64,000 bases of DNA from Hemicentrotus pulcherrimus (taxonomy: Eukaryota; Echinodermata; Echinoidea; Camarodonta; Strongylocentrotidae), in NCBI GenBank assembly GCA_003118195.1, contig BEXV01000630.1, positions 57,212 to 121,211 on the forward strand, given 5' to 3'. The stretch's first letter is position 1. Each line of letters opens with the position of its first letter. Shown in pieces: positions 23,256 through 58,568 of this stretch. The notes below the pieces were generated by a model. It saw only the letters and a program-made list of their open reading frames with translations. It was not told the DNA's origin and searched no databases. A program made the position numbers and the translations under genes.

Positions 23256-23256
23256 N
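23256..23256. other. Single undetermined base
   Basis: One N within the E40-E41 intron. Confidence 1.
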
Positions 23257-27899: not shown

Positions 27900-28811
27900 A
27901 AATCATTCTATGCGCTAGTAGCCCATGCCTCAGTGGAAGCACCTGTATAGAGGGGGCTGGACAATATGTCTGCCTCTGTGCACATGGTTACGAAGGTACC
28001 AACTGTGAAACTGAAATCCAAGAGTGCTTCTCAAACCCTTGTCAAAATGGAGCAACATGCTTTGACTTGATTGATGGCTATGAGTGCAGTTGTGCACCTG
28101 GTTGGATTGGAAATGACTGTGACATTGAGATACAAGAATGCTCAAGTAATCCATGCTTGAATGGAGCAATATGCGCAGAAATGGTGGATGGCTATCGCTG
28201 TATCTGCTTTGTTGGGTGGATAGGGGAGGACTGCGGAACTGAAGTCCTAGAATGCCTCAGTGATCCTTGCATGAATGGAGGAGCATGCATGGAGAAAGTG
28301 AATGGGTACCAGTGCAGGTGTGCTCCTGGATGGACAGGTACCCACTGTGAGACTGATATCATGGAGTGTCTGAGCATACCGTGCCTGAACAGTGGGACAT
28401 GTACAGACCTCATCAATGGGTTCACATGTCAATGTGCCAGTGGTTGGACTGGTCCCACCTGTAATGAGGACATAGAAGAATGTGCTAGTAACCCATGTGC
28501 TAATGGTGCTACTTGCCTCGACCTGACTAACGAATACAGCTGCCAGTGTGGCCCAGGATGGACTGGAACTTTATGTGAGATTGAAATCCAAGAATGTTCA
28601 AGCCAGCCATGCCAAAACGATGGAACCTGTATTGACCTGATCAATGCCTATGTGTGCATTTGAGCTCCTGGCTGGACGGGGAACGTATGCAAGAATGACA
28701 TCTTCGAATGCTCCAGTGACCCATGCTTGAATGGAGCAAATTGTATAGAGCTCATTGATGGCTACCAATGCGAGTGTACAGCACAATTTGAAGGAGTCAA
28801 CTGCGAATCGG
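27900..28811 (+). CDS. E48: eight EGF-like domains, in-frame TGA in domain 7
   Basis: 304 codons, exactly 8 x 38. The leaders run EIILC, EIQEC, EIQEC, EVLEC, DIMEC, DIEEC, EIQEC and DIFEC, the first appearance of the acidic pre-Cys1 motif expected of calcium-binding EGFs. Domains end in GW(I/T)G. In domain 7 the Cys5 codon is TGA at 28661-28663 (ICI then stop, where a Cys codon would give the usual C-x-C before APGW). Frame, cysteines and splice sites are otherwise perfect on both sides, so I keep it as coding. Either the allele or assembly is defective here, or the TGA is read through. Confidence 0.8.
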
Positions 28812-28814
28812 GTA

Positions 28815-29582
28815 CCTTGTGTGATCTTTCTTTGATGATATGCACATTGTGTTGAAGCTAATGCATTTCTGCACTTCATACTTTTTCTGCATTTTACTTT
28901 GTTGCACACTAAATGACTTTTTTTTTACTAGCTTGACGTGTGTTGGATGATTCAATAGTGCAATTTGCATTTTCTGTTTTCATGTTTGAATAGTTTTCCT
29001 GTATCTCCCTCTTTTCTGATTGAATTGAATCTTTAACAATAAGCAAACTTGTTTGAATGGAGCTACCTGCTTCAATGGAGCACAATAGGGCTACACATGT
29101 GCCTGTGCTATGGGATTCGAAGGAGATAATTGTGATTCAGGTCATGTTGGTCTAATTTAATCGGGAATGTGTAAGTTTTTCTGCTCTTTCATTTGCTGCA
29201 CAATAAATGACTTTCCTATTTGCTTGATGTTTTGCACATGTGTTGGATTATTTCAATAGTGCAATTTACATTTTTATTTTCATGTTTGAAAAGTTATCCT
29301 TTATCTCCCTCTTTTCTGATTGAATCTACTAAAGAATAGGGTAATGCAAGTCTAATTTTAACTGGAATGTGTAACTTTAAGTGTAATCTTTCTTTGAAGA
29401 TATGCACATTATGTTGAAGCTAATGCATTTATGCACTTCATAATTTTTCTGCATTTTCCTTTGCTGCACAGTAAATAACTTTCCTATTTGCCTGATGTTT
29501 TCCACCTTTTTTAGATTATTTCAATGGTATTTTTATATTCATGTTTGACCACTTTTCTGATTGAATCTCTAACAATAAGCAA
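28815..29582 (+). repeat. Intronic segment in about three imperfect copies
   Basis: The run ATGCACATT..GTTGAAGCTAATGCATTT..GCACTTCATA..TTTCTGCATTTT..TTGC(T)GCACA..AAATGACTTT is seen from 28838, partly from 29170 and again from 29398. Each copy ends with TTTTCTGATTGAATC. The first copy is followed by relic exon 8. Confidence 0.75.
29040..29141 (+). pseudogene. Relic EGF exon 8 (copy of E44)
   Basis: Matches E44 closely: TTGAATGGAGCTACCTGCTT, ATGGAGCACAATAGGGCTAC, GCTATGGGATTCGAAGGAGA, ending GATTCAG before GTCATG. CAA-GAG has become CAA-TAG (stop) and the 5' part with Cys1 is missing. The donor GTAATG has become GTCATG. Confidence 0.8.
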
Positions 29583-29651
29583 TGTTACTAAAGAGATTGC
29601 TTGTACTACAAAAATGATTGCTGGTTGATACTTCTATGGAACTAAAAGAAA

Positions 29652-29701
29652 CAAAATTGCACGAAAACAAAAATTGCACGAAAACAAAAATTGCACGAAA
29701 G
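29652..29701. repeat. 17-base minisatellite, three copies
   Basis: Three consecutive copies of the unit AAAAATTGCACGAAAAC, the first and last slightly changed. Confidence 0.85.
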
Positions 29702-30615
29702 ATAATAGGTACAGGTACAGTGCTAGTTTTCTATTAAAAAAAAAGAATTAATGCACTTTTTCCTGTACTTTGAGATCATATTGTCAAATTTCGGCTTTCT
29801 GTTTATTTTTACGGTTTAATCTGATGAGTGTGTCGTTATTCACTGCCATTCTTTGATTAGCAATGCGAAATAATAAAGATAATCTAGACTTTCATTCAGA
29901 ATCCGAATTTATCTTTATAACATCAAATGTTTGCACTACTAGATGTGATTGATTTCTGTCTTACACTGGCACTATCAGTCTTTTCGCAAAAAAATAGCTT
30001 TTTTTAAAAGTTGTATTTTTTCTGCACTTCTATCACTGAATGCATTGTGACTCTTATTCTTTTGCCAATGCTTTGAGCCTCTTATTCACAATAATGCATC
30101 TGATTTAATTCTTGAATCTCTGCACCATATTCAAAGTGTTTTAAATGTAACTTGTATTTAAATTATATTTAGAATATATGTAGAAAGAGCAAAAAAAGAA
30201 ATCAATTTTTTTTTTCCCTCAAATATGTACATTGAAGGAATAAAGTGTTGCAAAAATGTTGAATCTATTACAGTTATTCACATGTATTGCATAAGACTTT
30301 ATGTATCATGTTAACAATGAAAGCTAATATTTAATTTTTGATATTAGCCAACAGTGTACAGATATAATGATAATTCAATGTCTTCAGAAATGGTAATACC
30401 ACATGATAAATCAGTACCACATTACAGAAATGGATAAACATGGGGAAGACTATGTGGAACATTTATAAACCGTTGATTACTTTCAGTGTAATATATTCAT
30501 TAGAAATATAAAGCAATTCTGTGTGGTCATAAAAACTGCACAATATACATGACTTAGATTTAATTAAGGGGTAAGTTTTTGTCTAAAGTGATGTTTTTGT
30601 TTGTTTGTTTTTTAG

Positions 30616-30735
30616 CAATTCTTTCCTGTGAGAGCAATCCTTGCCAGAATGAAGCAACATGCTTTGAACATATTTCAGAAAATAGATATTTCTGTGTGTG
30701 TCCAGAAGGATTTACAGGGACAGACTGTGAATTGG
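30616..30735 (+). CDS. E49: one EGF-like domain
   Basis: 40 codons: AILSCESNPC, QNEATC, RYFCVC, GFTGTDC. Back to the 40-residue class; all three O-glycan consensus patterns are present. Confidence 0.92.
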
Positions 30736-31173
30736 GTAAGAAAGCAAAATACACTTTAGACTTGCTCCTGCTTGATATTTTTCATTTACCTCATTTAATC
30801 TCATCTATATGTTTTTCAAAAGTACAGGTCAATTTGTATGTTTACTAGAGTTTTATAATAAATTCATGTGATGGAAACATTTAGATTTTTTGATGTCACA
30901 TTTGACATATGTAATTAACCTAAAATTTCATTCTGTGTTCCTATTGCATATTTTTTTTAGGAAGAAATGTAATTTTTGTTTACCTTTTAAGGAAAAATGT
31001 ACCAAGAGTAATTTTCTGAATTAACAATTATGTCTTTGAATAATTTTCTGCTTCATTCAAAAGGTAAGAGGACTTATCTTAAACTTGTTAACTGACTTTG
31101 TTATGACATGTATTTGATTAGATGTACCGGAAATCAAAATGCTAATGTTTCTCTTTTGACACTGCATCCACAG

Positions 31174-31293
31174 ATATTATGTCATGCACCAGCCAACCAT
31201 GCCTCAACAATGGAACCTGCCAGGAGCAAAATGACGGCAATGATTTTTTGTGTCTCTGTACTCCTGGATTTACTGGCAGGCAATGTGAAATAG
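31174..31293 (+). CDS. E50: one EGF-like domain
   Basis: 40 codons: [29 protein letters not shown]. Donor GTCAGA is weaker than usual. Confidence 0.9.
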
Positions 31294-32303
31294 GTCAGAT
31301 AACTTTCATGTGCTTTTTGTTTATCCTATTCAATGTTTTTTTAACACAAGTAACAGTCTCGTTGTAATGTTGCTTGCCTGTTGTCTGTATATACTTGTAG
31401 GTAATGTATACATGTGTGCGGAATTCAATGTTGGTAGTCTGGTGTCAAATATACATGGTTCAACCAAATGACACAATGTGATTGTCATTAGTCAGTTTAT
31501 ATAATCTAATATTTTAATAACAACAGTTAAAATATATTGAAGAAACCATTTGAGAGGGGAAAAATGTGTATACTGACATCATACATCTACTGGAAGCACA
31601 CATTCCTAATGTGCAGCACACATATACAATACGTTTGGATAGTTCAGAATATTACTGATGCAAATACAAATCTCCCCTATATATGGAGTGTCATAGTGCC
31701 CACTCTGAATTGTCAATGAAACAGAAGATTGCTTACAAGTGATAAACACATTTACAGAAAAATCCAACTTTATGAAACACTTATCAGAAAAGAAAACAGA
31801 AACATCAGTATAATTATGGAAGTTTGAATAAAATCGGACAAGAAATAAGAAAGTTGAAAACTATGTACATGACATATGGGCACTTTAAATTGGTTTTATC
31901 GGTAATGACACAGTGACGTAGTGTAGTAAAACTTTCCCATTTGTTTCTACACACTAAATAAAACATAAATTTAGTGGTATATTTCAAACTTTCGCCATTC
32001 TGTTTCTCTTATTTTTCTGCTTTCATACAAATACACATAATTACAAAGGTCGGAAAGCCCCTTTGTACATGTTTATATTATCCTTGTACTAGAGCTAATG
32101 GCTGTTTTCATTAACTTTGTATTTCGTTTGATATGTATTAGAATGTGCATGACATTGTATTAGTCCTAATCTTAGGGCAAATATAGCAATAAGTTGATGT
32201 TTTGTTCATGTAAAAAACAGCTGTATTTCTGTTCAACATTTGTGTCTGTAATCATATGTAACCATTTGTTTTGTTTTGTACATAACATCTAACATTTTAA
32301 CAG
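31294..32303. other. Intron E50-E51, about 1 kb
   Basis: A+T-rich; no exon, repeat or RNA gene recognised. Confidence 0.4.
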
Positions 32304-32423
32304 ACCTGAGAACTTGCTTTACAAGTCCATGTCTAAACAATGCAACATGCTTCGAAGGATTCCAGGAGGGAACTTATTTTTGCTTTTGTGTGGACGGCTA
32401 TAGTGGAACCATCTGTGAAACAG
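32304..32423 (+). CDS. E51: one EGF-like domain
   Basis: 40 codons: DLRTCFTSPC, LNNATC, TYFCFC, GYSGTIC. Last EGF before the HYR block. NNAT is also an N-glycosylation sequon. Donor GTTAAT is weak. Confidence 0.9.
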
Positions 32424-32855
32424 GTTAATAGTCATAGTCAAATATATAAAAGATATCAATGTTGTATTTGAACTATACATACTATGATTTCAGTGGTTAG
32501 ATGATGATGTTGGTGTTCAGATTGGTGCATTTTTACAAGGAGTTGGTGATTTCTGGTAGAAGTTGATGTACATATAATGAATTTAATGAATGGTATGACC
32601 TTGGGCACAAACTGAAATACACATATGACTTATTATGCAAATCAGGTGCTGTCATTTTTTTTTTGAGAGAGATTAGGTACTCTGATTGCTTTTGATTGAA
32701 TAAAGCTATTGAATACAAATAATTGCATTAGACAATAATTAGAAAGTCTCAGTTGAGAATATAGGATTTTGGGATGAAATTATAGTAGAACATTCTTCGA
32801 ATACATTACAAAATATAATGTAAATACAACATAATTCTCTATTGTATAAATCTAG

Positions 32856-33098
32856 ACATCGCCGTACCTGCAATCTTTGGATGTCCTCCAAACATCACAA
32901 CTAACAATAACCCTGGCTCCCCTTCTGCTATTGTCTCTTGGTCGGAACCCACCTCATCGGACAACTCTGGGTCTGTGACACTCTCAACGGATGCCATCAA
33001 TAATGCATTATATCCCATCGGGGTAACTGAGGTCACCTATGTTGCAACTGATGATGCAGGCAACGAGGCATTCTGCACATTCTATATTACTGTTCAAG
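32856..33098 (+). CDS. E52: HYR domain 1
   Basis: 81 codons forming one complete HYR (hyalin repeat) domain, an immunoglobulin-like fold used in extracellular adhesion proteins. Visible signature: IFGCPPNIT near the start, VSWSEPTSSDNSG in the middle, YPIGVTEVTYVATDDAGN and then CTFYITV at the end. The two cysteines of the family are both present. It is a separate phase 1-1 exon, so it is as freely shuffled as the EGF exons. Confidence 0.93.
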
Positions 33099-33335
33099 GT
33101 AGGAGCAACCAAATGTTTTTGATTTGTGTAATTTTTTTATCACAATGTCCCACAATTTACTAGGATTGCATTTGAAATATTAATGCATTGTGCCATGTTG
33201 AAAGAATTCATTCCGCATATTCCAAATGAAGCCTGTTTTTGTAGATGATAAAGATACATACATGTATGCTAGTATAATTAAATGAATTGACTGTTCTTTA
33301 CATATCTGTGTCCTGTATTTCCTTTATCATTACAG

Positions 33336-33578
33336 ATCTCATGCCTCCTTTAATCATTGGATGCCCAACCAATATAACCCTCAATACTGAGGCTGGATCT
33401 GCATTTGCCACTGCTACCTGGCCAGAGCCTACCATATCGGATAACTCTGGAGTAGTGAACCTAGTGTCTGCTCCTGTGAATGGGGACCTGTATCCCATAG
33501 GAGTGTCCACAGTGACATACATAGCCCAGGATTTAGCCAACAATGCAGCCACATGCACCTTCAGCATTACTGTAATAG
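33336..33578 (+). CDS. E53: HYR domain 2
   Basis: 81 codons: IIGCPTNIT, ATWPEPTISDNSG, YPIGVSTVTYIAQD, NNAATCTFSITV. Glycine of the usual D-A-G-N turn is replaced (DLANN). Closest to HYR domain 1. Confidence 0.93.
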
Positions 33579-33899
33579 GTATGTATCTTGCTTCTAGTTA
33601 TAGGTATAAACGAAAGAGGCTGTATAATAATAATGCTTTTTCGCTTTTCTATAGTTTAATACATCAATGATGTCTCTAAGCGCTTTACAAATATATCCAT
33701 TTTCTTAACTATATGTATTACATTTGAATGGATTATTATTTTCTTAACATCAAATTATTTTGAAACTGTACAACTGGCTATTATTTACTCTTTAAAATAC
33801 TTAATCTTAATATTCTCATTTTGACTGAAGAAGTTGCAATTAATAGGACATGAACTTGATATCAATTTCTGAATTAATCATATTTTGTTTTATCTCCAG

Positions 33900-34145
33900 A
33901 CAATGAGAGTCCATCCTTCGTCATGTGTCCTGGAAACATCATCACCAACACAGACCCGAGACTTCCCACTGCTACAGTGGCTTGGTCAACACCTATTGCT
34001 GAGGACAATTCTGGCACTCCTGTTAGCATCAGCACCAATTCTACCAGTGGTTCGTCGTATGACATTGGAGAGTCAACAGTAGTTTATCTTGCTGTAGACC
34101 AAGCAGGCAACATGGCCGAGTGTACTTTCTCTGTTACAGTCATCG
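33900..34145 (+). CDS. E54: HYR domain 3
   Basis: 82 codons: SFVMCPGNI, VAWSTPIAEDNSG, YDIGESTVVYLAVDQAGN, ECTFSVTV. All HYR landmarks are intact, with several NST/NSG sequon-like sites. Confidence 0.93.
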
Positions 34146-34781
34146 GTAAGATCATTCTTGTCCACTATTATTACTTGTATATTATTCGATAATTAAATCT
34201 GATGCTATTAAACATCTTCTGTAAATTCCATGAAAAATGTTGGCTCACCATTCCTTTTCAAAAAATTATGACATTGAGTGATTGATTTTAATATTTCCCA
34301 ACAGCAATACAGTAATGCATTTCATGCAATGATGTTACACATACACGAAGAGAAACTATTGGTGGTAAAGGGGGTCAGATAATTGCTAATAAATGCTAGT
34401 CAAGCCTAACTCCTTAAACAGCTTAAACAAAGTATTTTGGTACAAATCAATTTAGAAAACGTAACAAAACAAAAATAATGAATTTACTATTACCATCGGT
34501 ACTTTAGAAAATATGAATACTTGAAAATGTTTACAATATACAAACTGATCATGTAAAATGTAATTTTTGTACATATGCAGACTGATATTTCATTCATGAT
34601 TTGCTCAACAAATGATTTTAAACAGAATTTTGAAACCTATTTCTAGAACTTGTTAATCTGACATGTGTACCTTCATAACATAATAACTCTGTAGGAAACC
34701 TTGTCAATGCCATTTTAATCATCTGGAAAGCAAGGTGAGACTAAAACTGAATGATAGTCATTGACCATTGTTAATCTACAG
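34146..34781. other. Intron E54-E55
   Basis: About 640 bases, A+T-rich, nothing recognised. Confidence 0.4.
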
Positions 34782-35030
34782 ATACTGAGGAACCAGTCTT
34801 TGCTATGTGCCCTACCGATGTTACTGTACAGACTACACCAGGTAGTGTTTCAGCCATTGCCCTGTGGACTCCACCATCCTCAACAGACAACAGTGGAAGT
34901 GTCACCGTGCAGCAGACAGCTGGTCCTACTCCAGGATCTGACTTTCCTATAGGTTCAACCGGAATTGTTTATGTTGCAAGAGACGAAGCAGGGAATGACA
35001 TGTCCTGTGCCTTAGCAGTCATTGTAATTG
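34782..35030 (+). CDS. E55: HYR domain 4
   Basis: 83 codons: VFAMCPTDVT, ALWTPPSSTDNSG, FPIGSTGIVYVARDEAGN, SCALAVIV. The final strand lacks the aromatic seen in the other three. Last HYR exon; EGF exons resume 325 bases downstream. Confidence 0.92.
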
Positions 35031-35355
35031 GTAAGAAAATAGATTGTACATGCAATTAAAAATATAGCTTTGGCAATTCTTCATGTTAAGATAAACTCCT
35101 GCTTATATTGTATGTTGAGTTAATTACGTAATAGTTTGTTTTCTTATTTTTCCAGGACGCTCTAACATGCAGTATTTCAAAAATTGTGCTCAAGTGGTTA
35201 GATTATTTTTTAGAGAATCAGTGTGTGTCTTAGCAAAATTTTATTGATATAAATAAGAACAGCATATACATCCTTAAGACAATAATTTAATACAATAACA
35301 CATGAATTACATGACCGTGTTGAAAAATTTATATTGCATCCTTTATTTCATTCAG

Positions 35356-35475
35356 GTACCTTCGATCCATGTGAATCCAATGTTTGTCAAAATAATGCTA
35401 CCTGTCGTGTAATCAATGGTACTGCCTACACCTGTGTCTGTCTACCTGGTTACACTGGAGAATTCTGTGAAATTG
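35356..35475 (+). CDS. E56: one EGF-like domain
   Basis: 40 codons: [30 protein letters not shown]. First EGF after the HYR domains and the last 40-residue one; the O-glucose site is lost (Val before Cys2). Confidence 0.92.
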
Positions 35476-35658
35476 GTAAGATAAAATATGTTTATTGTTA
35501 TTTAATCCAAATGATAAGATTTCTGTACAAAAAAAGCATTATTTCATTTTGTAATATTCAAATTATTCAATGATTGTGCACACAACACTTTACATTACAT
35601 TGTGCTTTTCTCTTGTTGTACATCTTATCCCTAATTTGTTCTACTGTTCTCTTTTTAG

Positions 35659-35772
35659 AAATCAACTTGTGTGATTCTGACCCATGTCAGAATAATGCAA
35701 GCTGTACCAACTACAGGACTTCTTACTCCTGCGATTGCCCTATGGGAATCATGGGCCAGAACTGTGAACAAG
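35659..35772 (+). CDS. E57: one EGF-like domain
   Basis: 38 codons: EINLCDSDPC, QNNASC, SYSCDC, GIMGQNC. From here on essentially all modules are 38 residues, with five residues between Cys3+1 and the aromatic before Cys4. Confidence 0.92.
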
Positions 35773-35932
35773 GTAACATACAAACTTAATCATCTCTTAG
35801 CCATCATTTCATGATTGAATGCTTGCCCAAAATTCTATATATTTCAATAAGAAAGTCGAAATTAGCTATGAATCCATATTATACTGTGAGAGATAAAAGT
35901 CGGCAAAAGTTTATTCCTCTCTATCTAGAATG

Positions 35933-35960
35933 TTTTCAAGTGGTAATTACCACCTGAAAA
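35933..35960. repeat. 28-base near-perfect palindrome
   Basis: TTTTCAAGTGGTAATTACCA followed by CCTGAAAA; the two halves differ at one base pair. Unexplained; may be the remnant of a foldback element or a protein-binding site. Confidence 0.7.
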
Positions 35961-36208
35961 AAAAATCATCCTTTATCATACATTTAAAATACTCGCTCAT
36001 TGTTTTGGTGTCATTCAGAAAGCATACATAATATGGTAAACATGTCAATAACATATCTGTATTAAAAAATCTCCTTCTTTTAGTGTAATTCTGCCTACCG
36101 TTATTGCTTTCAAAGGGGCTATAGTTTAGCACTGTTTTGAAAGAGGTTTATCAATCCTGCCAGGCAATCTTGTATCACTCTTACTGTAAAACATGTTTAT
36201 AATTCCAG

Positions 36209-36322
36209 ATATCGATGAGTGTGCCATGGACATTTGTCAGAACAATGCTACTTGCACAAACACATTTGGAGACTTCGTTTGTGAATGCCCTAATGGGTAT
36301 AGAGGATTGAGATGTCAAATTC
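36209..36322 (+). CDS. E58: one calcium-binding EGF domain
   Basis: 38 codons: DIDECAMDIC, QNNATC, TNTFGDFVCEC, GYRGLRC. The DIDEC start and C-x-N-x4-F-x-C-x-C match the calcium-binding and beta-hydroxylation consensus. Exon ends in C rather than G before GTAAGT. Confidence 0.92.
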
Positions 36323-36958
36323 GTAAGTTAATCATCTATTTAGTCTTTGATGAATGGTGAATGTCAATGAGAGAATGTAGTAATAACACATTTCATTGTT
36401 GACTTAACGACAGGGTCATAGTAGAATTGTAACGGTTGTACAATTGTTAACTAGAATAGCGTACTGATATGTAGCCAAGAGTAATATTGTCGTCTATAGA
36501 ATAATACAAATTGTTATACTTACAATCCTTCGGAATGATATTTCAAGCTGAAGCCACATCTCTCACAATTACACCACTTTACAAAAAAAACATTTAATTT
36601 TCTTGTAATCATTTATACTGTCCCCAACCATTCCCATTTCATATTAATGTAGACCTGTGCACATGTTTTTAGCTCTTAGACTACTATATAGTTCTCCCAT
36701 GTTCCATAAATAATGTTACATCCTCAGGCAGGGAGAGAGAAATCGATGGAAGACAAAAGATGCTTTCCTTTAACTGCATGAAAGCACATACTTAACATAT
36801 TTGAGGTCATACATGTTTACCTGTACCGAATATGTGTAGTTAATTAAAGGACATCCATTTTCCTCCAAATATGGCCATCTTCCTGACTGTACATGGTTTT
36901 CATAACCAATTAATTACCATTCCATCCAACACTCATTGTCATTCCACTCATGTTATAG
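36323..36958. other. Intron E58-E59
   Basis: About 640 bases, A+T-rich, nothing recognised. Confidence 0.4.
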
Positions 36959-37072
36959 CATTCAGTGCATGTGACTCAGATCCTTGATACAATGGAGGGT
37001 TGTGCAGTGGAAATTCAACCCACTTTGAATGCCAGTGTCCAATAGCCTGGACAGGCTTTGATTGCAGAACAG
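36959..37072 (+). CDS. E59: one EGF-like domain with TGA at Cys2
   Basis: 38 codons: AFSACDSDP, then TGA at 36985-36987 in place of Cys2, then YNGGLC, HFECQC, AWTGFDC. Five other cysteines, frame and both splice sites are intact. The next exon also has a stop, so skipping both would keep the frame; alternatively this pair is degrading. Confidence 0.7.
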
Positions 37073-37402
37073 GTAATCTTTGAAGATCGTTTCATCATGT
37101 TGTAAAATTTGTGAAGATGTCAAATAGTTTTGAAATCAGTGAATTCATTATTCCTCAATTTTGTTTTACTCCATAAATTTTTAAACGCATGTCTATGTTA
37201 TCATCTGTTCATAAAGGGACAAAAAAATACTAGTAAATACATTTAGTTTAGATTTTATGCATGTTATGTCTGGCGAATTAAACTATTTTAGCTAGAGACC
37301 TTGAAAGTTCAGCTACATGTACGTGCCAACTTAGCCATATACTATTGTATGGTCAAGAATTTGTATTGATAAACTTTATTTTCCTTACTGTGAATCAAAC
37401 AG

Positions 37403-37516
37403 AAAAGGATGCTTGTATTGGAGACCCCTGTCGTAATGGAGCAACCTGTTCAAACCAGTTTGACTCTGTGGTATGTACCTGCTAGCCAGGATGGACAGGA
37501 GACATATGTCATATCG
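37403..37516 (+). CDS. E60: one EGF-like domain with in-frame TAG
   Basis: 38 codons: EKDACIGDPC, RNGATC, VVCTC, then TAG at 37483-37485, then PGWTGDIC. The stop lies just after Cys5, where residues such as Q, A or P usually stand, so CAG to TAG is the simplest origin. All six cysteines are present. Donor GTCAGT. Confidence 0.7.
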
Positions 37517-38455: not shown

Positions 38456-38498
38456 ATTGACAATGATTTTGATATTTTGTTGCCTGTTTACCTTCCAG

Positions 38499-46147: not shown

Positions 46148-46945
46148 ATATTCTGGAATGTGAGAGCAACCCATGTCAGAATAGCGCCACGTGTCTGGAG
46201 CTTACAGATGGCTATGAATGTCAGTGCCCCACTGGATGGACTGGCACAGACTGTGAATTTGACATCGATGAATGCGCTGATGACGTCTGTCTTAACAGCG
46301 CAACCTGTATCAACCAAGATGGTGGATATGAGTGCATGTGCCCACCTGGCTGGACTGGAACGAACTGTGAACTTGACACTCCAGAATGTGTTAGCGACCC
46401 CTGCCTGAACGGAGCTAACTGCACTGAACTTACAAATGGATATGAGTGTGTCTGTGTCAAAGGATACAATGGCACACATTGTGAGTTAGACATAGACGAG
46501 TGTGCCAGCAGTCCCTGTCAGAATGGCGCAACATGTGTTGAGTTCATTGGAGGGTATCAGTGCCAATGACCTGTTGGTTATGAAGGCATCAACTGTGAAT
46601 TGGAGAGTCTTGAATGCATGAGCAATCCATGTCTCAATGGTGCTACCTGCTTGGACTTGATTGGAATGTATGAATGTCGCTGCCCTTCTGGATGGTCCGG
46701 TACCAACTGTGAGATAGAGATTGACGAGTGTGATTCCTCTCCGTGTCTTTTTAATTCAACCTGCGTCAATTTATTTGATGGATATGAATGCAACTGCACT
46801 GAAGACTACCGAGGTAGAAACTGTGAGAATGAAATCATAGTCTGTAGTGATGAACCCTGTCAGAATGGAGCCACCTGTGTGGATCTCGATGATGACTATC
46901 AATGCACATGTCCAGGAGGGTGGACAGGCAGAAATTGTGAACTAG
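46148..46945 (+). CDS. E75: seven EGF-like domains, in-frame TGA in domain 4
   Basis: 266 codons, exactly 7 x 38. Leaders are DILEC, DIDEC, DTPEC, DIDEC, ESLEC, EIDEC and EIIVC. Domains 2, 4 and 6 are clear calcium-binding types. In domain 4 the Cys5 codon is TGA (46567-46569; GYQCQ, stop, PVGYEG), immediately followed by C, the base that most favours readthrough. Everything else is intact: no frameshift, all other cysteines present, strong splice sites. Four of the seven domains keep the T before Cys3 needed for O-fucose in a GATC context; the others read SATC, GANC or NSTC. Confidence 0.8.
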
Positions 46946-48867: not shown

Positions 48868-48981
48868 AAATCATGGAGTGCATGAGCAACCCGTGCCAGA
48901 ATGGTGCTACTTGTGTTGATCTCCTGCCAGGGTATGAATGTAGATGTCCAGAAGGATGGAATGGTACAAATTGCGAGTTGG
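48868..48981 (+). CDS. E79: one EGF-like domain
   Basis: 38 codons: [34 protein letters not shown]. The acceptor GAAAG lacks a good pyrimidine at -3. Confidence 0.92.
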
Positions 48982-49025
48982 GTAAGTCAGCACACTTGTA
49001 CTTAGGGTACGAGTGCTACATACGT

Positions 49026-49164
49026 GTACAGTCAAACCTGCTTTAGTGACCATATGTCAACAAAGACCACCTGTCCACAAAGACCACATGCTAAAGGAAC
49101 CTGTCTACATAGACAACTTTTTGTCTTTCCCTTGGGATGTCGCTATAGACAGGTTTGACTGTAC
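49026..49164. repeat. Miniature inverted-repeat transposon (139 bases)
   Basis: Perfect 15-base terminal inverted repeats GTACAGTCAAACCTG (49026-49040) and its complement (49150-49164). Inside, the motif ACAAAGACCACCTGTCC recurs in tandem. Elements with ACAGTCAAACCTG ends are common non-autonomous DNA transposons in marine invertebrate genomes. Confidence 0.85.
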
Positions 49165-49765
49165 TTGCTGTTTATGAGCTAATATTTTTCTTGAGCTGCA
49201 CTTATGCTTTCTAATCTTCTCAATGCATGAGGCCTTCTTGAAAAAAAATGTATGATGCAAAATTACTGCATGATTTATTTTCCAGTTATTCTGCATTACT
49301 CCGACAGCGTATGTATATTTTGCTCTGATATGAACTTCATATTTATATGGAAACTACTATGTATGATAACCAAAAGGAAGCATGCTGCTTACATGTATTT
49401 ATTACATGGTTTGCAAATTTATATTTCTTTTATTTCTGCCTTTTGGTATAATCAAGAGCTATATCTATTTCGCATGCTTTTGGGTGCTATCCTTTTTCAA
49501 AGCATTAAACAAAAATTACTCCTTATCTTTGCCTTCGTAGAAAATGCTAACTTTGCCTTCAGTTGATTCTGGTTAAGATGTAAATATTGATCTTGTTCTT
49601 TTACGTATTAAATTTATAGTTAATTGCTTAACTTCTTGAGTACAGGAAGCCTTTCACCCTTTCCTCTAAGTCTAAACCTTTATATTCACATAACTCCACC
49701 TCTGCCAACCCTTTCCTGTCATTTACATGACTAAATCCTATGCACTGTTTGCTGTGCTGCTTTAG
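49165..49765. other. Rest of intron E79-E80
   Basis: A+T-rich, with a chance open frame at 49252-49566; no EGF pattern. Nothing recognised. Confidence 0.4.
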
Positions 49766-49879
49766 ACATCTTGGAGTGTGCTAGTAATCCCTGCCTGAAT
49801 GGAGCTACCTGTCAAGATCTCACACTTGGCTTTGAATGTCAGTGTTCCCAAGGATGGAATGGCACAGTTTGTGAAAATG
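49766..49879 (+). CDS. E80: one EGF-like domain
   Basis: 38 codons: [34 protein letters not shown]. Confidence 0.93.
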
Positions 49880-50340
49880 GTATGCCTTCAAAGTTATCTA
49901 TATGTACTCTTTTTTCTTATGAAACTATTTCGTGTGATAGGTAGTTCACACAAGAGCAGTTCACATTGATAAAGAAGAGAAAATGCAAAATACCCACTTC
50001 ACTTTTCATTGATTGTCTATTTTGCTTTTGCACAGATTCTATTGAGTTTCACTGTCTCACTTTTCTATTTTAGAGTGCAACAACTCCTTATTAACTTCAA
50101 TTGATTTCAATCCTTTCTATTTAAAACTGCTTAACAACACATAGACAAGAGTTTGAAGATACTTTTTTTAATTTAGGATTCGTTGATAAGTGTTGAAATA
50201 TTTTTCCAAATCCAGGGTTTTAGAGAGTTACTGGTAATTTCCCCAAGAAAGTAGTTTATTTATGCAAGTCTTATAATGTACATTGTAAATACGAGGTTAC
50301 ATCACTATGTAATAAATGTCATGCTTGTATACCTAATCAG
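49880..50340. other. Intron E80-E81
   Basis: Nothing recognised. Confidence 0.4.
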
Positions 50341-50454
50341 AGGTTCTTGAGTGTAGCAGTGACCCCTGCCAAAATGGAGCAACATGCGTGGAGCTGGTTG
50401 GGGGATATGAATGCCTGTGTGCTGAAGGCTGGAATGGTACCAACTGTGAGATTG
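50341..50454 (+). CDS. E81: one EGF-like domain
   Basis: 38 codons: [34 protein letters not shown]. The hydroxylation Asp is replaced by Glu. Donor GTGAGT. Confidence 0.93.
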
Positions 50455-50861
50455 GTGAGTCACAGAAAAGAATTGATTTCTACAATGTCTCCTCAATAAA
50501 AAAAAGTATTTCATGTGTAAAAGAATGATGTCTTACACTCAATCATGATTAAAATTTATTTGGTATTAACATTGATAGAAGACTTATTTTGTTGCTGCAA
50601 TCGTAAATGAATGCATACTTTCTCTCCTGTTTTCATGTAGTCAGAAAAACTATCCAGGACATTTGCGTTGATCTGTAGTTAGCTTGGACATGTGTCCTCA
50701 GTCCAATTGATTCTTTGATGATTGAATTACTTGATCATGTGAAAATTAAGGGATGATTCAAGCATGTGTTAAAGTGATTGAATTTGTTTTACAAGATGTA
50801 TTGCTGGCAGACACACAAGGGTAAATGAAAGCTTTGTTAATGTATTATTCTTCAACACCAG

Positions 50862-50975
50862 AATCAAACGAATGCTTAAGCAATCCCTGCCTGAATGGAG
50901 CGGCCTGCAAAACAATCTTCAATGGTTTTCTGTGTGTCTGTGAACCTGGCTTCAATGGCTCACTTTGTGAAATAG
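50862..50975 (+). CDS. E82: one EGF-like domain
   Basis: 38 codons: [35 protein letters not shown]-fucose consensus lost. Confidence 0.93.
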
Positions 50976-51222
50976 GTAATACCATTAATTATAATCAATA
51001 TCACATTTTTCATGTCTTGTCACGTTCCTGTAGAGAAAAAAGTAAATAATGCACAGCAAAGAATGATATAATAACAATTTTGTTGAAAATAAGTTCTACG
51101 GAAATATATGTATCCTACTTCTTTGCTGTAATCTAGGACAGTTTATTAGCACGATAGCCACTAGACCTAGTCTACATATTGTGATAATAATGACAAACTT
51201 TATGTATATCCATTGATTTTAG

Positions 51223-51336
51223 ATATTGATGAGTGCAATCTTGACCCTTGTCAGAATGGAGCAACTTGTACAGAAGGTACTGCAAGTTTCTTATGCACAT
51301 GTGTTCCAGGATGGACTGGAACAACATGTGAGGAAG
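51223..51336 (+). CDS. E83: one calcium-binding-type EGF domain
   Basis: 38 codons: [34 protein letters not shown]. Confidence 0.93.
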
Positions 51337-51604
51337 GTAATGGAATCTTGTATACATTGTAAATTTTCTTCATTTTTCTCTTTCTTACTGTATGTTGTAT
51401 GGGGCTCAAATGGCACCCTTGCGATAGTGCGCCTTGAGCATTTGATATCAAGTGTATTTGGTGCCATGCAACTCTTATTCACTATTGTTATCAACGGAGA
51501 CAAGGATCATCTCCTTTGGTACCTCGATCCTTCGAAGGATGTAATTGTAATGGTCAATTGTGCTTTTGTTGAATGTTACAAGTAAAATCATACTTCATTT
51601 TTAA

Positions 51605-51778
<174 letters not shown>

Positions 51779-51969
51779 TAATTTCTGATAATGAAATGAT
51801 ATTCTAGCAATGTGGTCCCTTGATATCAATTTTTAATGTCGTTCTGATGATACAAAGTTTGCTCCAATGTCTTTGTAAAGAGAGAGCATTGTGTGCACTT
51901 TGTTTTCAAGTGATTTTCTTTGTAACCATTTGATTCATTTATTGATTGTTGTCATATTCATATCTACAG

Positions 51970-52308
51970 AATCTAGAGAATGCATTCTTAACCCTTGCCT
52001 CAATGGAGCCACATGCTACAACTACACTGATGGTTTACTATGCGAGTGCGCTATGGGTTTCAACGGACTAAACTGTGAATTTGCAATCAGCTGTGATCAG
52101 AACCCTTGATTGAATGGTGCATCGTGTGTCAATGGCAGTGATGGATACCAGTGTATCTGTGACTTTGGCTGGAGAGGCATGAACTGTGAGACAGAAATTG
52201 ATGAATGTGAACGGATGAACTGCATGAATGGAGCCACATGCTTTGATCTGGTTGCTGGCTTTGTCTGCTTCTGTCAACCTGGATTCGAAGGCATCTTTTG
52301 TGAAACAA
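51970..52308 (+). CDS. E85: three EGF-like domains, in-frame TGA in domain 2
   Basis: 113 codons. Domain 1: [24 protein letters not shown]. Domain 2: SCDQNP, then TGA at 52107-52109 in place of Cys2, then LNGASC, GYQCIC, GWRGMNC. Domain 3, calcium-binding start EIDEC: CERMNC, MNGATC, GFVCFC, GFEGIFC. Frame and splice sites are intact. Confidence 0.78.
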
Positions 52309-52643
52309 GTACATATATATATATTTTTTTTAGTTATATAACTGTCTTCCTTCTTTAAATGATTTTTTGATAAATTAACTAAATTCTTTAATGCTTGCCA
52401 ATCTTGTAAGTTCTTTGTTTCCATTTAAAAGTTGTCTAATGTCTTGAAACTATGTGCAATTTTACCACAAAATAATTTTAAAATCCGTTTATAGTGCACT
52501 GGAGTATTTAAGAAACCATGGCGGAATTCCAAATGGGCAATGACCATATTACAAACATATATCTGTTTAATATGTAGAGCATTATACAAGTTCACTTGTC
52601 ATTTAATGTGCAATGAAAATGTTATTTCTTTTGCATCTATTAG

Positions 52644-52757
52644 ATATACTTGAATGCAGTAGTGATCCCTGTCAGAACGGTGCGACATGCGTGGATGAAG
52701 TAGATGGTTATCAATGTGTATGTCTGCAGGGATGGACAGGCACGCACTGTGAGACTG
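52644..52757 (+). CDS. E86: one EGF-like domain
   Basis: 38 codons: [34 protein letters not shown]. All hydroxylation and O-glycan consensus sites present. Confidence 0.93.
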
Positions 52758-53175
52758 GTAAGAAACTCAATTTCCGTCTGTTTCAACATGAAGCAGTAAA
52801 CATGAGAGGCTAGTCTACATGTTATCTAAATAATCTATTAGTTATTACAAGAAATGTTTAAAGTTTTTTTAATAAATGAATGAAATATTATTATATTATT
52901 ATACATGTAATTAACTATGTATCCTCTGGAAGTAGAGATTTAGTGGTGTACAAATCAATCCAGAGTTATGGTCTTTAAAAGTATTACAGCAAGAACTGTT
53001 TATTTTTCTGCTTTCTAGTAATGCCTTAATGACAAATATAATCCAAGTTTAATGTACAGTCATCAATGATTTCTGCCTGACTGATAATGTTTTTAGGAAA
53101 ATCAGCTCATAAACATGTACAGATGTATATATATATATATATATATAACTGTATGTCGTAATCATTTATATGCAG
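52758..53175. other. Intron E86-E87
   Basis: Contains a (TA)n run at 53126-53147. Nothing else recognised. Confidence 0.5.
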
Positions 53176-53289
53176 ATATCCCAGAATGTGAAAGTGATCC
53201 CTGCATGAACGGGGCAACCTGCACTGAACTCACCAATGGCTATCAGTGTATATGTATTCCAGGATGGACAGGAACACTCTGTGAATCAG
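53176..53289 (+). CDS. E87: one EGF-like domain
   Basis: 38 codons: [34 protein letters not shown]. Donor GTCAGT. Confidence 0.93.
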
Positions 53290-53361
53290 GTCAGTTTCTG
53301 GTTCATAGATTTATTTCAAAACGGAATATATTCATGCACATTTATAACAATAATGTTCTGT

Positions 53362-53510
53362 GTTTATTTAGCGCTCAATACATCGATCCAACGATGAGCC
53401 TATAAGCGCTTTACAGATATATTATTACCCCGGTCATCAGATTCAGGCTCACGCACACACAATGTATGCACATTTTCCACTCCCTTAGGAGCATTCCCAA
53501 AATGTATTCT
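53362..53510. repeat. Dispersed repeat, AGCGC-type family
   Basis: TTTATTTAGCGCTCAATACA, then TAAGCGCTTTACAGATATAT, then ATTACCCCGGTCATCAGATT. A shorter relative stands at about 33626-33705 (TTTAATACATCAATGATG, CTCTAAGCGCTTTACAAATA). Probably a tail of a SINE-like element. Confidence 0.6.
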
Positions 53511-53883
53511 TAATTTGAACGAATTTGAAAAAGTAAAACACAGTTCTTCAAGGTTTTACTCTTAGCTTTTCTTCTTATTTTTTTTTGCCCTCTGCTAAAC
53601 ACAAAAGAGAATTTATCTTAATAAGACTGTTTGGTATTTAGTATATTGTCTCTTTCAAGAAAGAAAAGTGGATTTTGTTTGGAATGTTAATGATATGTAA
53701 AAAGAGATGAACACAAAATAAAAGGTAAATTATTGTGATGATGCATTCATTCTATTTTCAAAGGGGAATAGGTCTTTTGCTAGGAGTGATAAAGTTTTAA
53801 GTAAAGAGATATTGGAAATGCTGGTTTGAAATTGTCCCAAAGCATGTTTTCATTCCATACTCTTCTGTATTGTCATACTTCAG

Positions 53884-53997
53884 AAATCATGGAGTGTGAA
53901 AGCATCCCTTGTCAGAATGGTGGTACATGTATTGATCTGATCGGATCCTATGAATGCAGATGTCCTGCTGGCTGGACTGGAATCAACTGTGAATCAG
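53884..53997 (+). CDS. E88: one EGF-like domain
   Basis: 38 codons: [34 protein letters not shown]. Confidence 0.93.
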
Positions 53998-54023
53998 GTA
54001 ACCTGGCGTTCAGTGCTTTGTTA

Positions 54024-54620
54024 ATATCGTCAGTGGGGTGACAAAACCTCGTATCTCAAAAATCATGAATTTTCAGGAGAGCGAAAAAACTTTCCTGTCT
54101 CAACAAATTTAGTGCTGTGACACTGTCCTTTCTTTTTAAAACTGGAATATTTATACAATTTTGAATGTCATTGTTGAAATACAGTAAAATAATTGTTTTT
54201 AGATTTGAATGTGAGTTACAAGGTTTTTGCTTTAATCTACATTGAGATACAAGTTTTTAGATGTTATTCAAATTGAGATACAAGTTCTTACTTTCAACTC
54301 TGAATGAGCTATGAGGTTTTGGTTGAATAAGTTACGAGGATTTGAATACACTAACTTCGATAGTGTTAGACCGTGTATGAGTTACGAGGAAAATGAGTTA
54401 CGTATCTCATGTTACGAGGTTTTGTCAGTTCAGCTTCAAAGGGGGTTAAAGTTACGAGGTTTAGTTTAAGGGTGTTTGTGTGGATTTGTAAAAAACCGAG
54501 ACAGGAGGCGTTCCATGGATTTATCAGGTGGTGTCGTAAGCCATTAGCTACACAATTATGCAAAAAAATCAAAATCTCAAAAAATTGAGATACAAGGTTT
54601 TGTCACCCCTCCGACGATAT
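54024..54620. mobile_element. Non-autonomous DNA transposon-like element, about 597 bases
   Basis: Terminal inverted repeats of about 36 bases at 54024-54059 and 54585-54620: ATATCGTCAGTGGGGTGACA against the complement ATATCGTCGGAGGGGTGACA, continuing as AAACCTCGTATCTCAA. The interior has no open frame but repeats a motif of the form GAG(T/A)TAC(G/A)AGGTTTT about eight times, for example near 54250, 54280, 54330, 54380 and 54410. It lies in the E88-E89 intron. Confidence 0.75.
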
Positions 54621-54927
54621 ATATATGAATATTGCATTCTTTTCGTTACTTTGTTCATATTCTTTTTAACATGACTTTTTTTTTATAGTTTACTCCAAGA
54701 TTTGTCATGTTTGCTTTGTTGATTACATTACTTGACTTTGATGCAAATTAATTCTTTGTAGTGTAAGTAGGTAAAAAGGTATGTGTAAAGTTAAGACAAT
54801 CCATAAATCATCATTTACAATCACAAAGTTGATCAAGGTTCCTTTTCAATACGGAAAGGCCAATATGAAATTTGTGTAGGGGTGAATTAAAGCATTGCTA
54901 TCATTTCTTTATAAATGTTCTCTGAAG

Positions 54928-55041
54928 ATATTCTGGAGTGCTCAAGTGATCCCTGTTTGAATGGTGCTACCTGTGAGGAGCTAACCGATGGTTATCTATG
55001 TGTCTGTGTACCAGGCTTCAGTGGCACAGCATGTCAAGAAG
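54928..55041 (+). CDS. E89: one EGF-like domain
   Basis: 38 codons: [37 protein letters not shown]. Followed by the longest intron of the window, but with a perfect GTAAGT donor, so it is not a terminal exon. Confidence 0.92.
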
Positions 55042-55911
55042 GTAAGTTTGATATTTTGTGGATTTGCTTAACATCGACACACACAATAGGAGACATCACC
55101 TTTATCAATAATTTTTCACAAACGCTTCAATAACTTTCTAATGAAGTTTTCATGCTTTTGTTTGATTTATTTGTACAACCTAAGTTCACAGTGTAAGTTG
55201 TGACTGTTTTTGCCAAATATTTTTGTGTTCACTTTAGTGTGGTGGTGGTTTGAACACTTTTGATATAGTTCAACTGTAAATTTGAAGTGCCATATTCGAT
55301 CTTGTATTTATTAACAATTTTATGACATCTTAATCAAATTATGATATGTGTTTTTCATATATTTGTAGTAGATTGAGTACAAATGACTGTAAAATTTGTT
55401 CATGTGTAACATGGCACTGATATCATTTTATGTTTGCATGTTGTATGAACTTTGTTTAAATTTTCTGAACATGTATTTGTTGCTCAATAAATTTCACTCT
55501 CCTACTGATGCTGTGTTTTTAGTAATATCTGTTGCAAGTGTATTTGTTTGAATATTTACCATTTCCCACTTAAATATACTATACTACCACACTACTCCAT
55601 TTTTGCCTTCTATTATGCCTTTTTTAATTAAGACCTACTATATTATGTTACGCAGCAAGGCAGCCTATTCACAATACAAGCTATGCTTTTTATTTAGGCT
55701 CCCCACATTTAACATTGTATTACCTTGCCTGTCATATCTATCTAGTTTGAAACTTCGTACCTATTTTCCTTACATTATACTTGATTTGAAATTTTTATAT
55801 TATTTTGTAATCCACGATTATACGCTTGTAAAAAGGTTTTTTTTAAACAAAATTGTTGTTTATGTAAATAGGAAACAAATAAACTTCAAACTTTAAACAA
55901 TGCCTGTAACT

Positions 55912-56165
55912 AAAACGTTTTAGTAGAGCGTCCGCCTCAAAACCGGGAGGTCGTGGGTTCGAACCCCAGCCGCGTCATACCAAAAGACGTTAAAAGATGG
56001 GAGTTGTTGCTATCTTGTTTGGCGTTCAACAATAAGGGATAGAGCAACGTCGATCTGGCGCTGCATAGTGGCTGCCGGGCTCACGATCAATTAGGCAAAA
56101 ATAATTTCCGTTTCGGTTTAATAAAATTTGAAGTGGACTATTAGGCTAACATTATTATTATTATT
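55912..56165 (+). mobile_element. tRNA-derived SINE
   Basis: The head has tRNA promoter-like boxes: A box around TTAGTAGAGCGTCCGCC (55919-55935) and a perfect B box GGTTCGAACCC at 55956-55966. An unrelated body (GGCGCTGCATAGTGGCTGCC and so on) is followed by an (ATT)n tail at about 56150-56165. No folded acceptor stem, so not a working tRNA gene. Confidence 0.8.
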
Positions 56166-57065
56166 ATCATAACTATATTTCTGCTTGATAATAAGACAAA
56201 AGAAAAATGTTTGATTTACTGCAACATGTGGATGATAGAATGATTAAGATAGCCTTGTTTGGTAAAATATTTGTGATAACAAGAATTTTTAAAATCCTGC
56301 GGGAACTGGCCTATGAGGCATGCCTGCCTTTTATATATAAAACCATCTTATCAGCAAGAGCCCAATTTATGAATAGTTGTTATGTCTGATATTTTTTCTT
56401 TCACTTATATTTTTTAAATTTGGAAAGGATTTGATAACAACAACAATCATAACCATTTATTTTATACAAACTTATCGATGCATTGTTTGTCTATGTCATT
56501 TAACCCTGTAGTGCCATTCCACTTTGATAATCAATAATTTACCAACTTACTTGCATGATAATAGATAATAGTTGCATGGAATATGGTTGGCAGGAAAAAA
56601 GGTGCACTATTTAATAATTATTTACACTAATATGAACACAAAACCCTTTAATTTGTGATATTAAAGTGCATGATGCTATATGCCTCCAGCGGGTACATAC
56701 CCTTATTAGTGAAGACACAACATCGTTGAGGTAAATTTGATTTAAAAGTTTTCTTCCTTTATAATTGCTACTATTTCGTCTTGCCTAAAAAACAAATGTA
56801 TTTTTGCATTGTATCTATATTCCTTGCAGCCTTAAAAAGCCAATGCATTGTTACTTATCTGCCGTAATCCTTTCATATGTTATTAACAAATGACAATATA
56901 GAACCTATCACTGCTCGTAAATAATGCCCTTGTACTTTATTGTGTGCACAACCTCTAACAACTGATGGATGGTAACAAAGCATGCATTGTCGATTAAAAG
57001 CATGTTTTTAATCACCTGCGAATGTACGATAAAATGCATGTAAGTACCCAGTATGATTTATGCAC

Positions 57066-57523
57066 TTAAAGACCATATCTGACCTGAAAAATGAAATGGA
57101 TGAAATTTTATGAACAGAAAGCTTATATGCTATAATGTTCGATAATATCAATTATATGCCATTTTAGGGTCTGTCAGAGGTATATCAGCATTCTGAAAAC
57201 TCAAAATCTAAAGCTTTTAAAATCGGAAGTTGTCAACCAAAAAACTTGCTATTGGCTTGATGACATTATTTTGATTAAGTAAGGCTCATCTCTTCAGCTA
57301 TATATGTGAACCAATGAGGTCCACATGTTATATCCTCACTGTAACTTTGGCAAATTTGACCCCTGTTGACCCATAATTAGGAGGGTTGTGAAAAATGAGG
57401 TTTTAATTTGTTTTTGTGCCATAATGAAAGGGTAGATACTTTTTATTTCTTTATATTTGTATACTACATTCATTCATTTTTCCATTTATATAAAGTTGTA
57501 TTTTGATCGGATGGGGTCTTTAA
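57066..57523. mobile_element. Candidate TTAA-flanked miniature element, 458 bases
   Basis: Starts TTAAAGACCATATCTGACC and ends GATCGGATGGGGTCTTTAA. The ends are inverted: TTAAAGACC is perfect, the next ten bases match about six of ten. TTAA at both outer edges would fit piggyBac-like or Kolobok-like target duplication. No coding capacity. Confidence 0.5.
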
Positions 57524-57998
57524 CAAACCTTAGTGTGTGTTCAACCTACTTGTTTCAAAGTCACATTTTATATTAATGCACATGTATGATTTGATCTAAT
57601 CAACCTGATCGATCATGTCATCATTAAAACAAAAATAGTTTTAGCTTAGCCATCTCCTAATTCTTAAAAAAATTCACCTATTTGAAAAATAACAATTTGA
57701 ACAAGTTATAATTAGATTTAACTTTTCAACTAGATTTAGCCTTTTAGCAATATTTATAACTTATATCCATTTTTGTTGAAACGTACTGAGAGAAGTTTTG
57801 GTAGAATCGAATCTTCCCTTAATCAAACCATTTAAAGAATATATATCTGTTCTTCCCATTAGTTATGGAATTAAAAAATGCACTTTTTAAGAAAGATATA
57901 GTTTCATTAATTTCCATTTTCTATGGCATATTCTATTCAGTCGAACCTTTTTAAGGAGAATGCTCTGTATCAAAATCAAATACTTGTTTTGTTTACAG

Positions 57999-58568
57999 AA
58001 ATTATTGAGTGTGCCAGCAATCCCTGTCAGAATGGTGCCACTTGCAGTGATCTTGTTAACAGCTATGAGTGCATCTGTGCAGCAGGATGGAATGGAACCT
58101 TCTGTGAGATTGAGATCAATGAATGTGTCAGTAATCCATGCCTGAATGGGGCTACTTGCAATGATCTCATAGCGGAATATGAGTGTCTTTGCTCCCCTGG
58201 ATGGAATGGAACACACTGCGAAATAAATATAGATGACTGCGTTAGTCACATGTGCCTCAATGGTGCTACCTGCATTGATGAAATAGATGGTTACAGTTGC
58301 CAGTGTCCTGAAGGTTGGGTTGGTCGATTCTGTGGTATTGAGATCTTAGAATGTCTGAGCAACCCCTGACTCAATGGAGGAAACTGTATAGACCTGATTC
58401 CAGGATATCAATGTGAATGCATTACTGGATGGACAGGAACACACTGTGAAACTGAGATCTTGGAATGTTCTTCTGATCCTTGCCAGAACGGAGCTACATG
58501 CACTGATCTGATTGGTTCATATGCGTGTCGATGTGCTCCAGGCTGGAATGGCACTAACTGTGAAATCG
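57999..58568 (+). CDS. E90: five EGF-like domains, in-frame TGA in domain 4
   Basis: 190 codons, 5 x 38. Leaders: EIIEC, EINEC, NIDDC, EILEC, EILEC. In domain 4, Cys2 is TGA at 58367-58369 (CLSNP, stop, LNGGNC) followed by C. The tandem paralogue in E95 domain 9 has TGC at exactly the matching place (62224-62226), so the ancestral codon was Cys. Domains 3-5 match domains 8-10 of E95. Domain 3 has FC-GIEILEC in place of the usual ETEILEC linker, also shared with E95. Confidence 0.82.

What the first reader, a model, noticed from the sequence alone, without database searches (positions are those of the whole stretch)
28661..58369. In-frame TGA codons replace essential EGF cysteines five times, with no frameshift anywhere
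Seen: TGA at 28661 (E48 domain 7, Cys5), 36985 (E59, Cys2), 46567 (E75 domain 4, Cys5), 52107 (E85 domain 2, Cys2) and 58367 (E90 domain 4, Cys2). All 97 exons keep length divisible by three and usable splice sites, and in all other domains I checked every cysteine is present, so cysteine is lost only as TGA and never by missense. Plain decay should give frameshifts and Cys missense changes too. Inference: either UGA is decoded (selenocysteine, or near-cognate tRNA-Cys readthrough), or these are null alleles or sequence errors. Two of the five are followed by C, a leaky context.
Basis: partly seen in the sequence, partly recalled or inferred. Interest (0 to 1): 0.85.

Follow-up and report, generated by a model that had tools for sequence, protein, structure and literature searches.

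The report
UGA stops at EGF cysteines
In an unnamed animal genome, a giant gene built of some 240 EGF modules carries stop codons that fall mostly where a cysteine belongs, while no intact module was seen with that cysteine replaced by another amino acid, which hints that the cell reads some UGA codons as cysteine, though this is unproven.

Summary
The five TGA codons are real, in frame, and each sits at an invariant EGF cysteine. The gene fills much of contig C630 (177 kb): Reeler domain, then about 240 EGF domains, running off the 3' end. Four more TGA-at-Cys lie outside the window; 223 six-Cys domains use TGT 969, TGC 360, TGA 9 at Cys, with no Cys missense in an intact exon. Other giant EGF genes of this genome show 8 further TGA, all at Cys (one uncertain), and 4 TAA/TAG elsewhere. 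Relics aside, 17 of 23 stops inside EGF domains are at Cys (expected 27-40%; P 4e-6 to 1e-3). Plain decay is excluded. Genome-wide, a Cys2 motif occurs 609 times with TGY, 4 with TGA (all in this gene), 0 with Arg/Ser/Gly codons. Best reading: stops are partly tolerated here, UGA at Cys most of all, because readthrough can insert Cys. Selenocysteine is untested (no 3' UTR held; no tRNA-Sec above cut-off). Null alleles or exon skipping remain the main rival.

The parts
27900..28811 (+). 8-EGF exon; TGA at 28661 replaces Cys5 of domain 7
36959..37072 (+). 1-EGF exon; TGA at 36985 replaces Cys2
   Evidence: motif match
37403..37516 (+). 1-EGF exon, otherwise intact; TAG at 37483 at a non-Cys column (after Cys5)
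46148..46945 (+). 7-EGF exon; TGA at 46567 replaces Cys5 of domain 4
51970..52308 (+). 3-EGF exon; TGA at 52107 replaces Cys2 of domain 2
57999..58568 (+). 5-EGF exon; TGA at 58367 replaces Cys2 of domain 4; three tandem copies have TGC, TGC, TGT there
61286..62425 (+). 10-EGF exon, intact tandem copy used as comparison (copy B)
14063..14170 (+). decayed EGF exon relic, Cys missense, no donor
16094..16135 (+). EGF exon fragment with TAA at 16112
16407..16472 (+). truncated EGF exon relic
25656..25694 (+). EGF exon fragment
29041..29133 (+). EGF exon relic with TAG at 29086 and Cys1 missing

Best explanation
The window lies in a living, very large Reeler-plus-EGF gene of an unnamed animal, one of several giant EGF genes in that genome in which in-frame stop codons are partly tolerated. 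Shown: stops sit in otherwise intact, spliceable EGF modules of a constrained gene, mostly as TGA exactly at Cys. Inferred: ribosomes read through a share of these stops; at UGA the near-cognate tRNA-Cys (besides Trp and Arg tRNAs) restores the right residue, so TGY-to-TGA at a Cys is only mildly harmful, while stops elsewhere and Cys missense changes are removed faster. TGA stays rare (9 of 1338 Cys codons on the contig), so it is tolerated, not a normal Cys codon.
For: On C630: 9 TGA and 0 missense at 1338 Cys positions of 223 domains. Stops inside EGF domains, relics aside, all loci read: 17 TGA all at Cys, 6 TAA/TAG elsewhere, 0 TGA elsewhere; 17/23 at Cys against 0.27-0.40 expected from the codons of this gene, P 4e-6 to 1e-3; leaving out the window, 12/17, P 2e-4 to 1e-2. 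Genome-wide Cys2 motif: TGY 609, TGA 4, Arg/Ser/Gly codons 0. On C66 two TGA, both at Cys1, join open frames of 1084, 1443 and 512 residues, about 9 kb of EGF reading frame, where skipping one small exon cannot help. Tandem copy C with TAA and TGA has Ka/Ks 0.24 against copy B. TGA domains are not clearly degraded (rank test P 0.10). Published readthrough work under drugs: UGA is filled by Cys in 27-44% (earlier studies) or 65-70%, else Trp or Arg (PMC11079177, passages).
Against: TAA/TAG also occur (6, plus two in relic exons and one TAG seen on C117), so stops are not tolerated only at Cys. The excess on other contigs alone is modest (8/12, P 5e-3 to 6e-2), and one of the 8 (C105) is uncertain. 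Cys2-TGA with the motif occurs in this gene only (4/140 against 0/473, Fisher P 0.003), against a uniform genome-wide rule. No enrichment of the leaky +4 C. In copy C six altered codons, the two stops among them, cluster at codons 241-288. Two of nine TGA domains score in the lowest 2%. Trp-to-TGA should be tolerated too and was not seen. No RNA, protein or second individual; no non-EGF gene was tested; Tyr/Ser/Phe and Trp at Cys2 were counted on C630 only.
Confidence: 0.42

Rival explanations
1. Ordinary nonsense alleles: each stop is a harmful or mild null variant, or its symmetric exon is skipped, in a modular, redundant gene; Cys missense is removed faster because a misfolded EGF module is dominant-negative.
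For: TAA/TAG stops and five relic exons exist; single-EGF exons are phase 1-1 and can be lost without a frameshift; the two lowest-scoring TGA exons (36959, contig 153292) look weakened; changes cluster near the stops in copy C.
Against: 17/23 stops at Cys where 27-40% are expected; no frameshift and no Cys missense seen in the stop-bearing exons; 11 stops on one contig together with Ka/Ks 0.24 between two of its copies; two TGA in about 9 kb of continuous EGF frame on C66.
Confidence: 0.38
2. Selenocysteine: the mRNA carries a SECIS element and UGA at Cys positions inserts Sec.
For: Sec is the natural stand-in for Cys (recalled); the 17 TGA found all sit at Cys; multi-Sec proteins such as SelP are known (PMC3473315, passages).
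Against: Several different genes would each need a SECIS; no tRNA-Sec match above the cut-off (3 sub-threshold matches, 53 of 10,459 candidates scored); no Rfam hit in the window or in 96 kb of flank, but the 3' UTR is not on the contig, so this is no test; TAA/TAG unexplained.
Confidence: 0.08
3. Decaying pseudogene.
For: Stops and some relic exons.
Against: No frameshift seen in intact exons, 0 Cys missense against 9 Cys stops where 8-19% stops are expected among non-silent Cys changes; Ka/Ks 0.24.
Confidence: 0.03
4. Sequencing or assembly errors.
For: Single assembly, no reads seen; N gaps in the contig.
Against: Random errors would also give frameshifts and Cys missense; none seen in 223 domains nor at Cys2 with Arg/Ser/Gly genome-wide.
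Confidence: 0.04

Closest known systems
Near-cognate readthrough of UGA (CFTR nonsense codons)
   Same: UGA can be filled by Cys, Trp or Arg (PMC11079177, passages)
   Different: There single stops under a readthrough drug; here many internal UGAs at one kind of residue, with no readthrough shown
Selenoprotein P and other multi-Sec proteins
   Same: Several in-frame UGAs at Cys-like positions in one secreted protein
   Different: SECIS not seen (3' end missing); the word EGF does not occur in the main text of one survey of metazoan selenoproteins (PMC3473315)
Euplotes nuclear code, UGA = Cys (NCBI table 10; recalled)
   Same: UGA at Cys positions
   Different: There UGA is a standing Cys codon; here it is 9 of 1338 Cys codons on the contig and TAA/TAG also interrupt frames
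Fibropellin-like and Reeler+EGF proteins (e.g. P0326, Apostichopus japonicus)
   Same: Reeler domain and tandem EGF domains
   Different: P0326 has 1742 residues and also an HYR domain; this gene has some 240 EGF domains and in-frame stops

Membership tests
Selenoproteins | In-frame UGA at a Cys-equivalent site | tested here: met
   9 of 9 TGA in intact exons of C630 at Cys columns
[quoted passage not shown]
   gene runs off the contig end; no Rfam match in what is held
Selenoproteins | tRNA-Sec in the genome | tested here: inconclusive
   0 matches above cut-off, 3 below (40.7-42.7 bits, cut-off 47), only 53 of 10,459 candidates scored
UGA = Cys genetic code | UGA used freely as Cys codon in all genes | tested here: not met
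   Cys2 motif: 0 TGA against 473 TGY outside C630; TGA 0.67% of Cys codons on C630, 0.42% in the other loci read, which were partly chosen for stops
Programmed stop readthrough | leaky context such as UGA followed by C | tested here: not met
   +4 C in 4 of 9, expected 4.6
Programmed stop readthrough | protein made past the stop | not testable with these tools
   no RNA or protein data
Pseudogene | unconstrained decay: frameshifts, missense at essential sites | tested here: not met
   met only by the five relic exons
Reeler+EGF (fibropellin-like) extracellular protein | Reeler domain plus tandem EGF domains in one gene | tested here: inconclusive
   PF02014 E 5e-13 upstream on the same strand, PF00008 in the repeats; that they form one gene is inferred from order and strand, and an N gap lies between the first EGF exons and the window

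The most novel reading that the evidence does not exclude
In this animal, UGA is physiologically decoded as cysteine (by tRNA-Cys or the Sec machinery) at a small share of the disulfide cysteines of several giant EGF proteins, an incipient, residue-specific relaxation of the genetic code.
Probability: 0.22. Interest if true: 0.88.

Novelty: new variant of a known kind. Interest (0 to 1): 0.55.

Why it matters
If UGA at Cys codons is read as Cys in living animal genes, annotation pipelines cut or drop real proteins, and the genome would show how a stop codon starts to change meaning through a residue that near-cognate readthrough can insert. If instead these are nulls or skipped exons, they show how modular EGF genes survive nonsense changes better than missense ones. 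Both are directly testable.

Tried and rejected
Rejected: whole-gene pseudogene and random error (no frameshift or Cys missense seen in intact exons). Leaky +4 C context as cause. UGA as a free Cys codon genome-wide. UAA/UAG as Gln codons: the six sites fit no single residue. Led nowhere: naming the organism through protein searches (best identity among the listed hits 54%); Rfam for SECIS; tRNA scan of contig pieces; C955 pieces as a control gene (4 intact domains only, one piece all N). Not obtained: genome-wide PF00008 survey, genome-wide Cys2 Tyr/Ser/Phe count, Cys3 and neighbour-codon patterns (the tool was busy at each try).
Full report
What is there. The window is G000:C630:57212-121211 of a 414 Mb genome. 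Its + strand encodes a long row of EGF-like domains; an HMM built from clear window domains finds 139 hits on the + strand, relics included, and none on the - strand, in 98 exon clusters, nearly all with AG/GT borders in phase 1 and length divisible by three. I read the whole 177,269-base contig: 240 + strand hits, weak ones included; 238 of them at 12 bits or more form 172 clusters, 166 with both splice sites (one of these is the truncated relic at 16407, and donor choice was off for a few exons). A Reeler domain lies upstream (PF02014) and the row of EGF exons runs off the 3' end. No 3' UTR is held. Several stretches read N, among them 48868-57211, between the first EGF exons and the window.

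The five TGAs. All are present and in frame at Cys5, Cys2, Cys5, Cys2, Cys2. Outside the window there are four more: contig 123430 (Cys1), 153337 (Cys3), 160534 (Cys2) and 171579 (Cys2). In the 223 domains that could be read with six Cys/TGA positions, the Cys codons are TGT 969, TGC 360, TGA 9. Five of nine at Cys2 is itself uneven (P 0.009 before correcting for six positions).

Exon 37403-37516 is intact but for TAG at 37483; outside the window, the 10-EGF exon at contig 122620-123760 has TAA at 123367 besides its TGA. Five relics or fragments in the window (14063, 16094, 16407, 25656, 29041) show ordinary decay, with a Cys-to-Tyr change, a TAA and a TAG. So stops are not limited to Cys or to TGA; but in intact exons I saw no Cys lost by missense.

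Is it more than chance? From the codons of the gene (8606 codons), Cys codons should take 27-40% of nonsense changes, depending on transition bias and A+T bias. On C630 it is 9 of 11 intact-exon stops (P 3e-4 to 5.5e-3). For Cys changes, stops should be 8-19% of non-silent ones; 9 stops and 0 missense is 1e-9 to 3e-7 for shares of 0.10 to 0.19, so something removes Cys missense but not Cys-to-TGA.

Other genes. A search of the genome with a window exon gave 143 EGF matches, 108 of 1276 candidates scored. I read the 20 loci that came with it and short stretches at the other matches flagged with stops. I set aside, by reading rather than with a splice model, stops that lie outside domains or in introns at exon edges (C66 at 303082; L045 at 1088; flagged stops in L047, L048, L049, L051, L052, L053, L054, and a TAG before a domain in L057). 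What remains inside EGF domains: TGA at Cys on C66 (4), C320 (1), C2325 (2), C105 (1, less certain), and TAA/TAG elsewhere on C66 (1), C356 (1), C270 (2). Total with C630: 17 TGA, all at Cys, and 6 TAA/TAG; the TAA and TAG of two relic exons are left out. 17/23 has P 4e-6 to 1e-3; 12/17 without the window 2e-4 to 1e-2; 8/12 for other contigs alone 5e-3 to 6e-2; 17/24 with a TAG seen after Cys2 on C117 1e-5 to 2e-3 (expected share from this gene's codons). TGA never fell at a non-Cys site (17/17, P 7e-4 if 65% is expected). Among 318 near-complete domains of those loci I saw no Cys column with another amino acid; the 11 listed with fewer than six Cys seem to end at exon borders or, once, at a TGA (for the one on C475 at 195185 the exon end is my reading, without proof). 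These loci were chosen partly for their stops, so rates there are not unbiased.

A genome-wide check without that choice: the motif [ND]P-Cys2-xNG[GA]xC. With TGY 609 matches (425 + 184), with TGA 4, all on C630, with Arg/Ser/Gly codons 0. On C630 it is 136 TGY, 4 TGA, 0 Trp, 0 other missense. So Cys2-TGA is concentrated in this gene (4/140 against 0/473, Fisher P 0.003). The Tyr/Ser/Phe count for the genome did not complete and Trp was not asked.

Constraint. The end of the window and the next 8 kb hold tandem copies (A 115209, B 118496, C 122620, D 127358). Copy A's TGA is derived: the others have TGC, TGC, TGT. Copy C has two stops yet Ka/Ks to B, stop codons left out, is 0.24; its own changes are 11 silent to 9 altering, B's 7 to 10. 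Against this, six altered codons of C, the two stops among them, gather at codons 241-288. TGA domains as a group do not score worse than intact domains with one Cys masked (P 0.10), but two of nine are in the lowest 2%.

Mechanism. A haplotype with 11 stops in a constrained gene needs some way to live with stops. Exon skipping could serve the small phase 1-1 exons, but predicts frameshifts and Cys missense in the same exons, which I did not see, and hardly serves C66, where two TGA join open frames of 1084, 1443 and 512 residues. Readthrough serves both, and explains the Cys bias because UGA is filled by Cys, Trp or Arg tRNAs, with Cys 27-44% in earlier studies and 65-70% in one, under readthrough drugs (PMC11079177, passages seen). 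That step is inferred. Selenocysteine would need a SECIS in each gene; tRNA-Sec had no match above cut-off, but only 53 of 10,459 candidates were scored.

In print. Searches of the open library for selenocysteine with EGF, UGA readthrough with EGF or fibropellin, nuclear UGA reassignment in metazoans, Reeler with EGF, and multi-Sec proteins showed, in the titles and abstract openings listed (8 to 20 papers a search, none), nothing describing UGA at EGF cysteines; I saw passages of PMC3473315 and PMC11079177 only. Euplotes UGA-Cys, NCBI table 10 and the dominant-negative effect of EGF Cys missense are recalled.

Verdict. Real, non-random pattern; mechanism open between tolerated readthrough at Cys and tolerated nulls.

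Noticed in passing
window 57999-63703 and contig C630 122620-128977: About 4.1-4.7 kb tandem duplication in at least four copies (multi-EGF exon, 4-EGF exon, three single-EGF exons).
   Followed up: yes
L013:5547-5837 (contig C630 about 45.5 kb): Reeler domain (PF02014) upstream on the same strand; with about 240 EGF domains this would be a very large EGF protein; a Reeler+HYR+EGF protein exists in a sea cucumber (P0326).
   Followed up: partly
G000:C66:252375-262289 and G000:C356:226490-234805: Very long EGF reading frames: on C66 open frames of 1084, 1443 and 512 residues parted only by two TGA (both Cys1); on C356 889 and 1624 residues parted by one TAA.
   Followed up: partly
G000:C117:88154-88180: TAG directly after Cys2 in an EGF motif of another EGF gene.
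   Followed up: no
window 12833-24710: Many near-identical single-EGF exons ([22 protein letters not shown]), with relics between them: recent birth and death of exons.
   Followed up: no
contig C630 48868-57211, 128983-139331, 161774-164817; L022: Long N stretches, gaps or withheld sequence, so the exon count is a lower bound.
   Followed up: no
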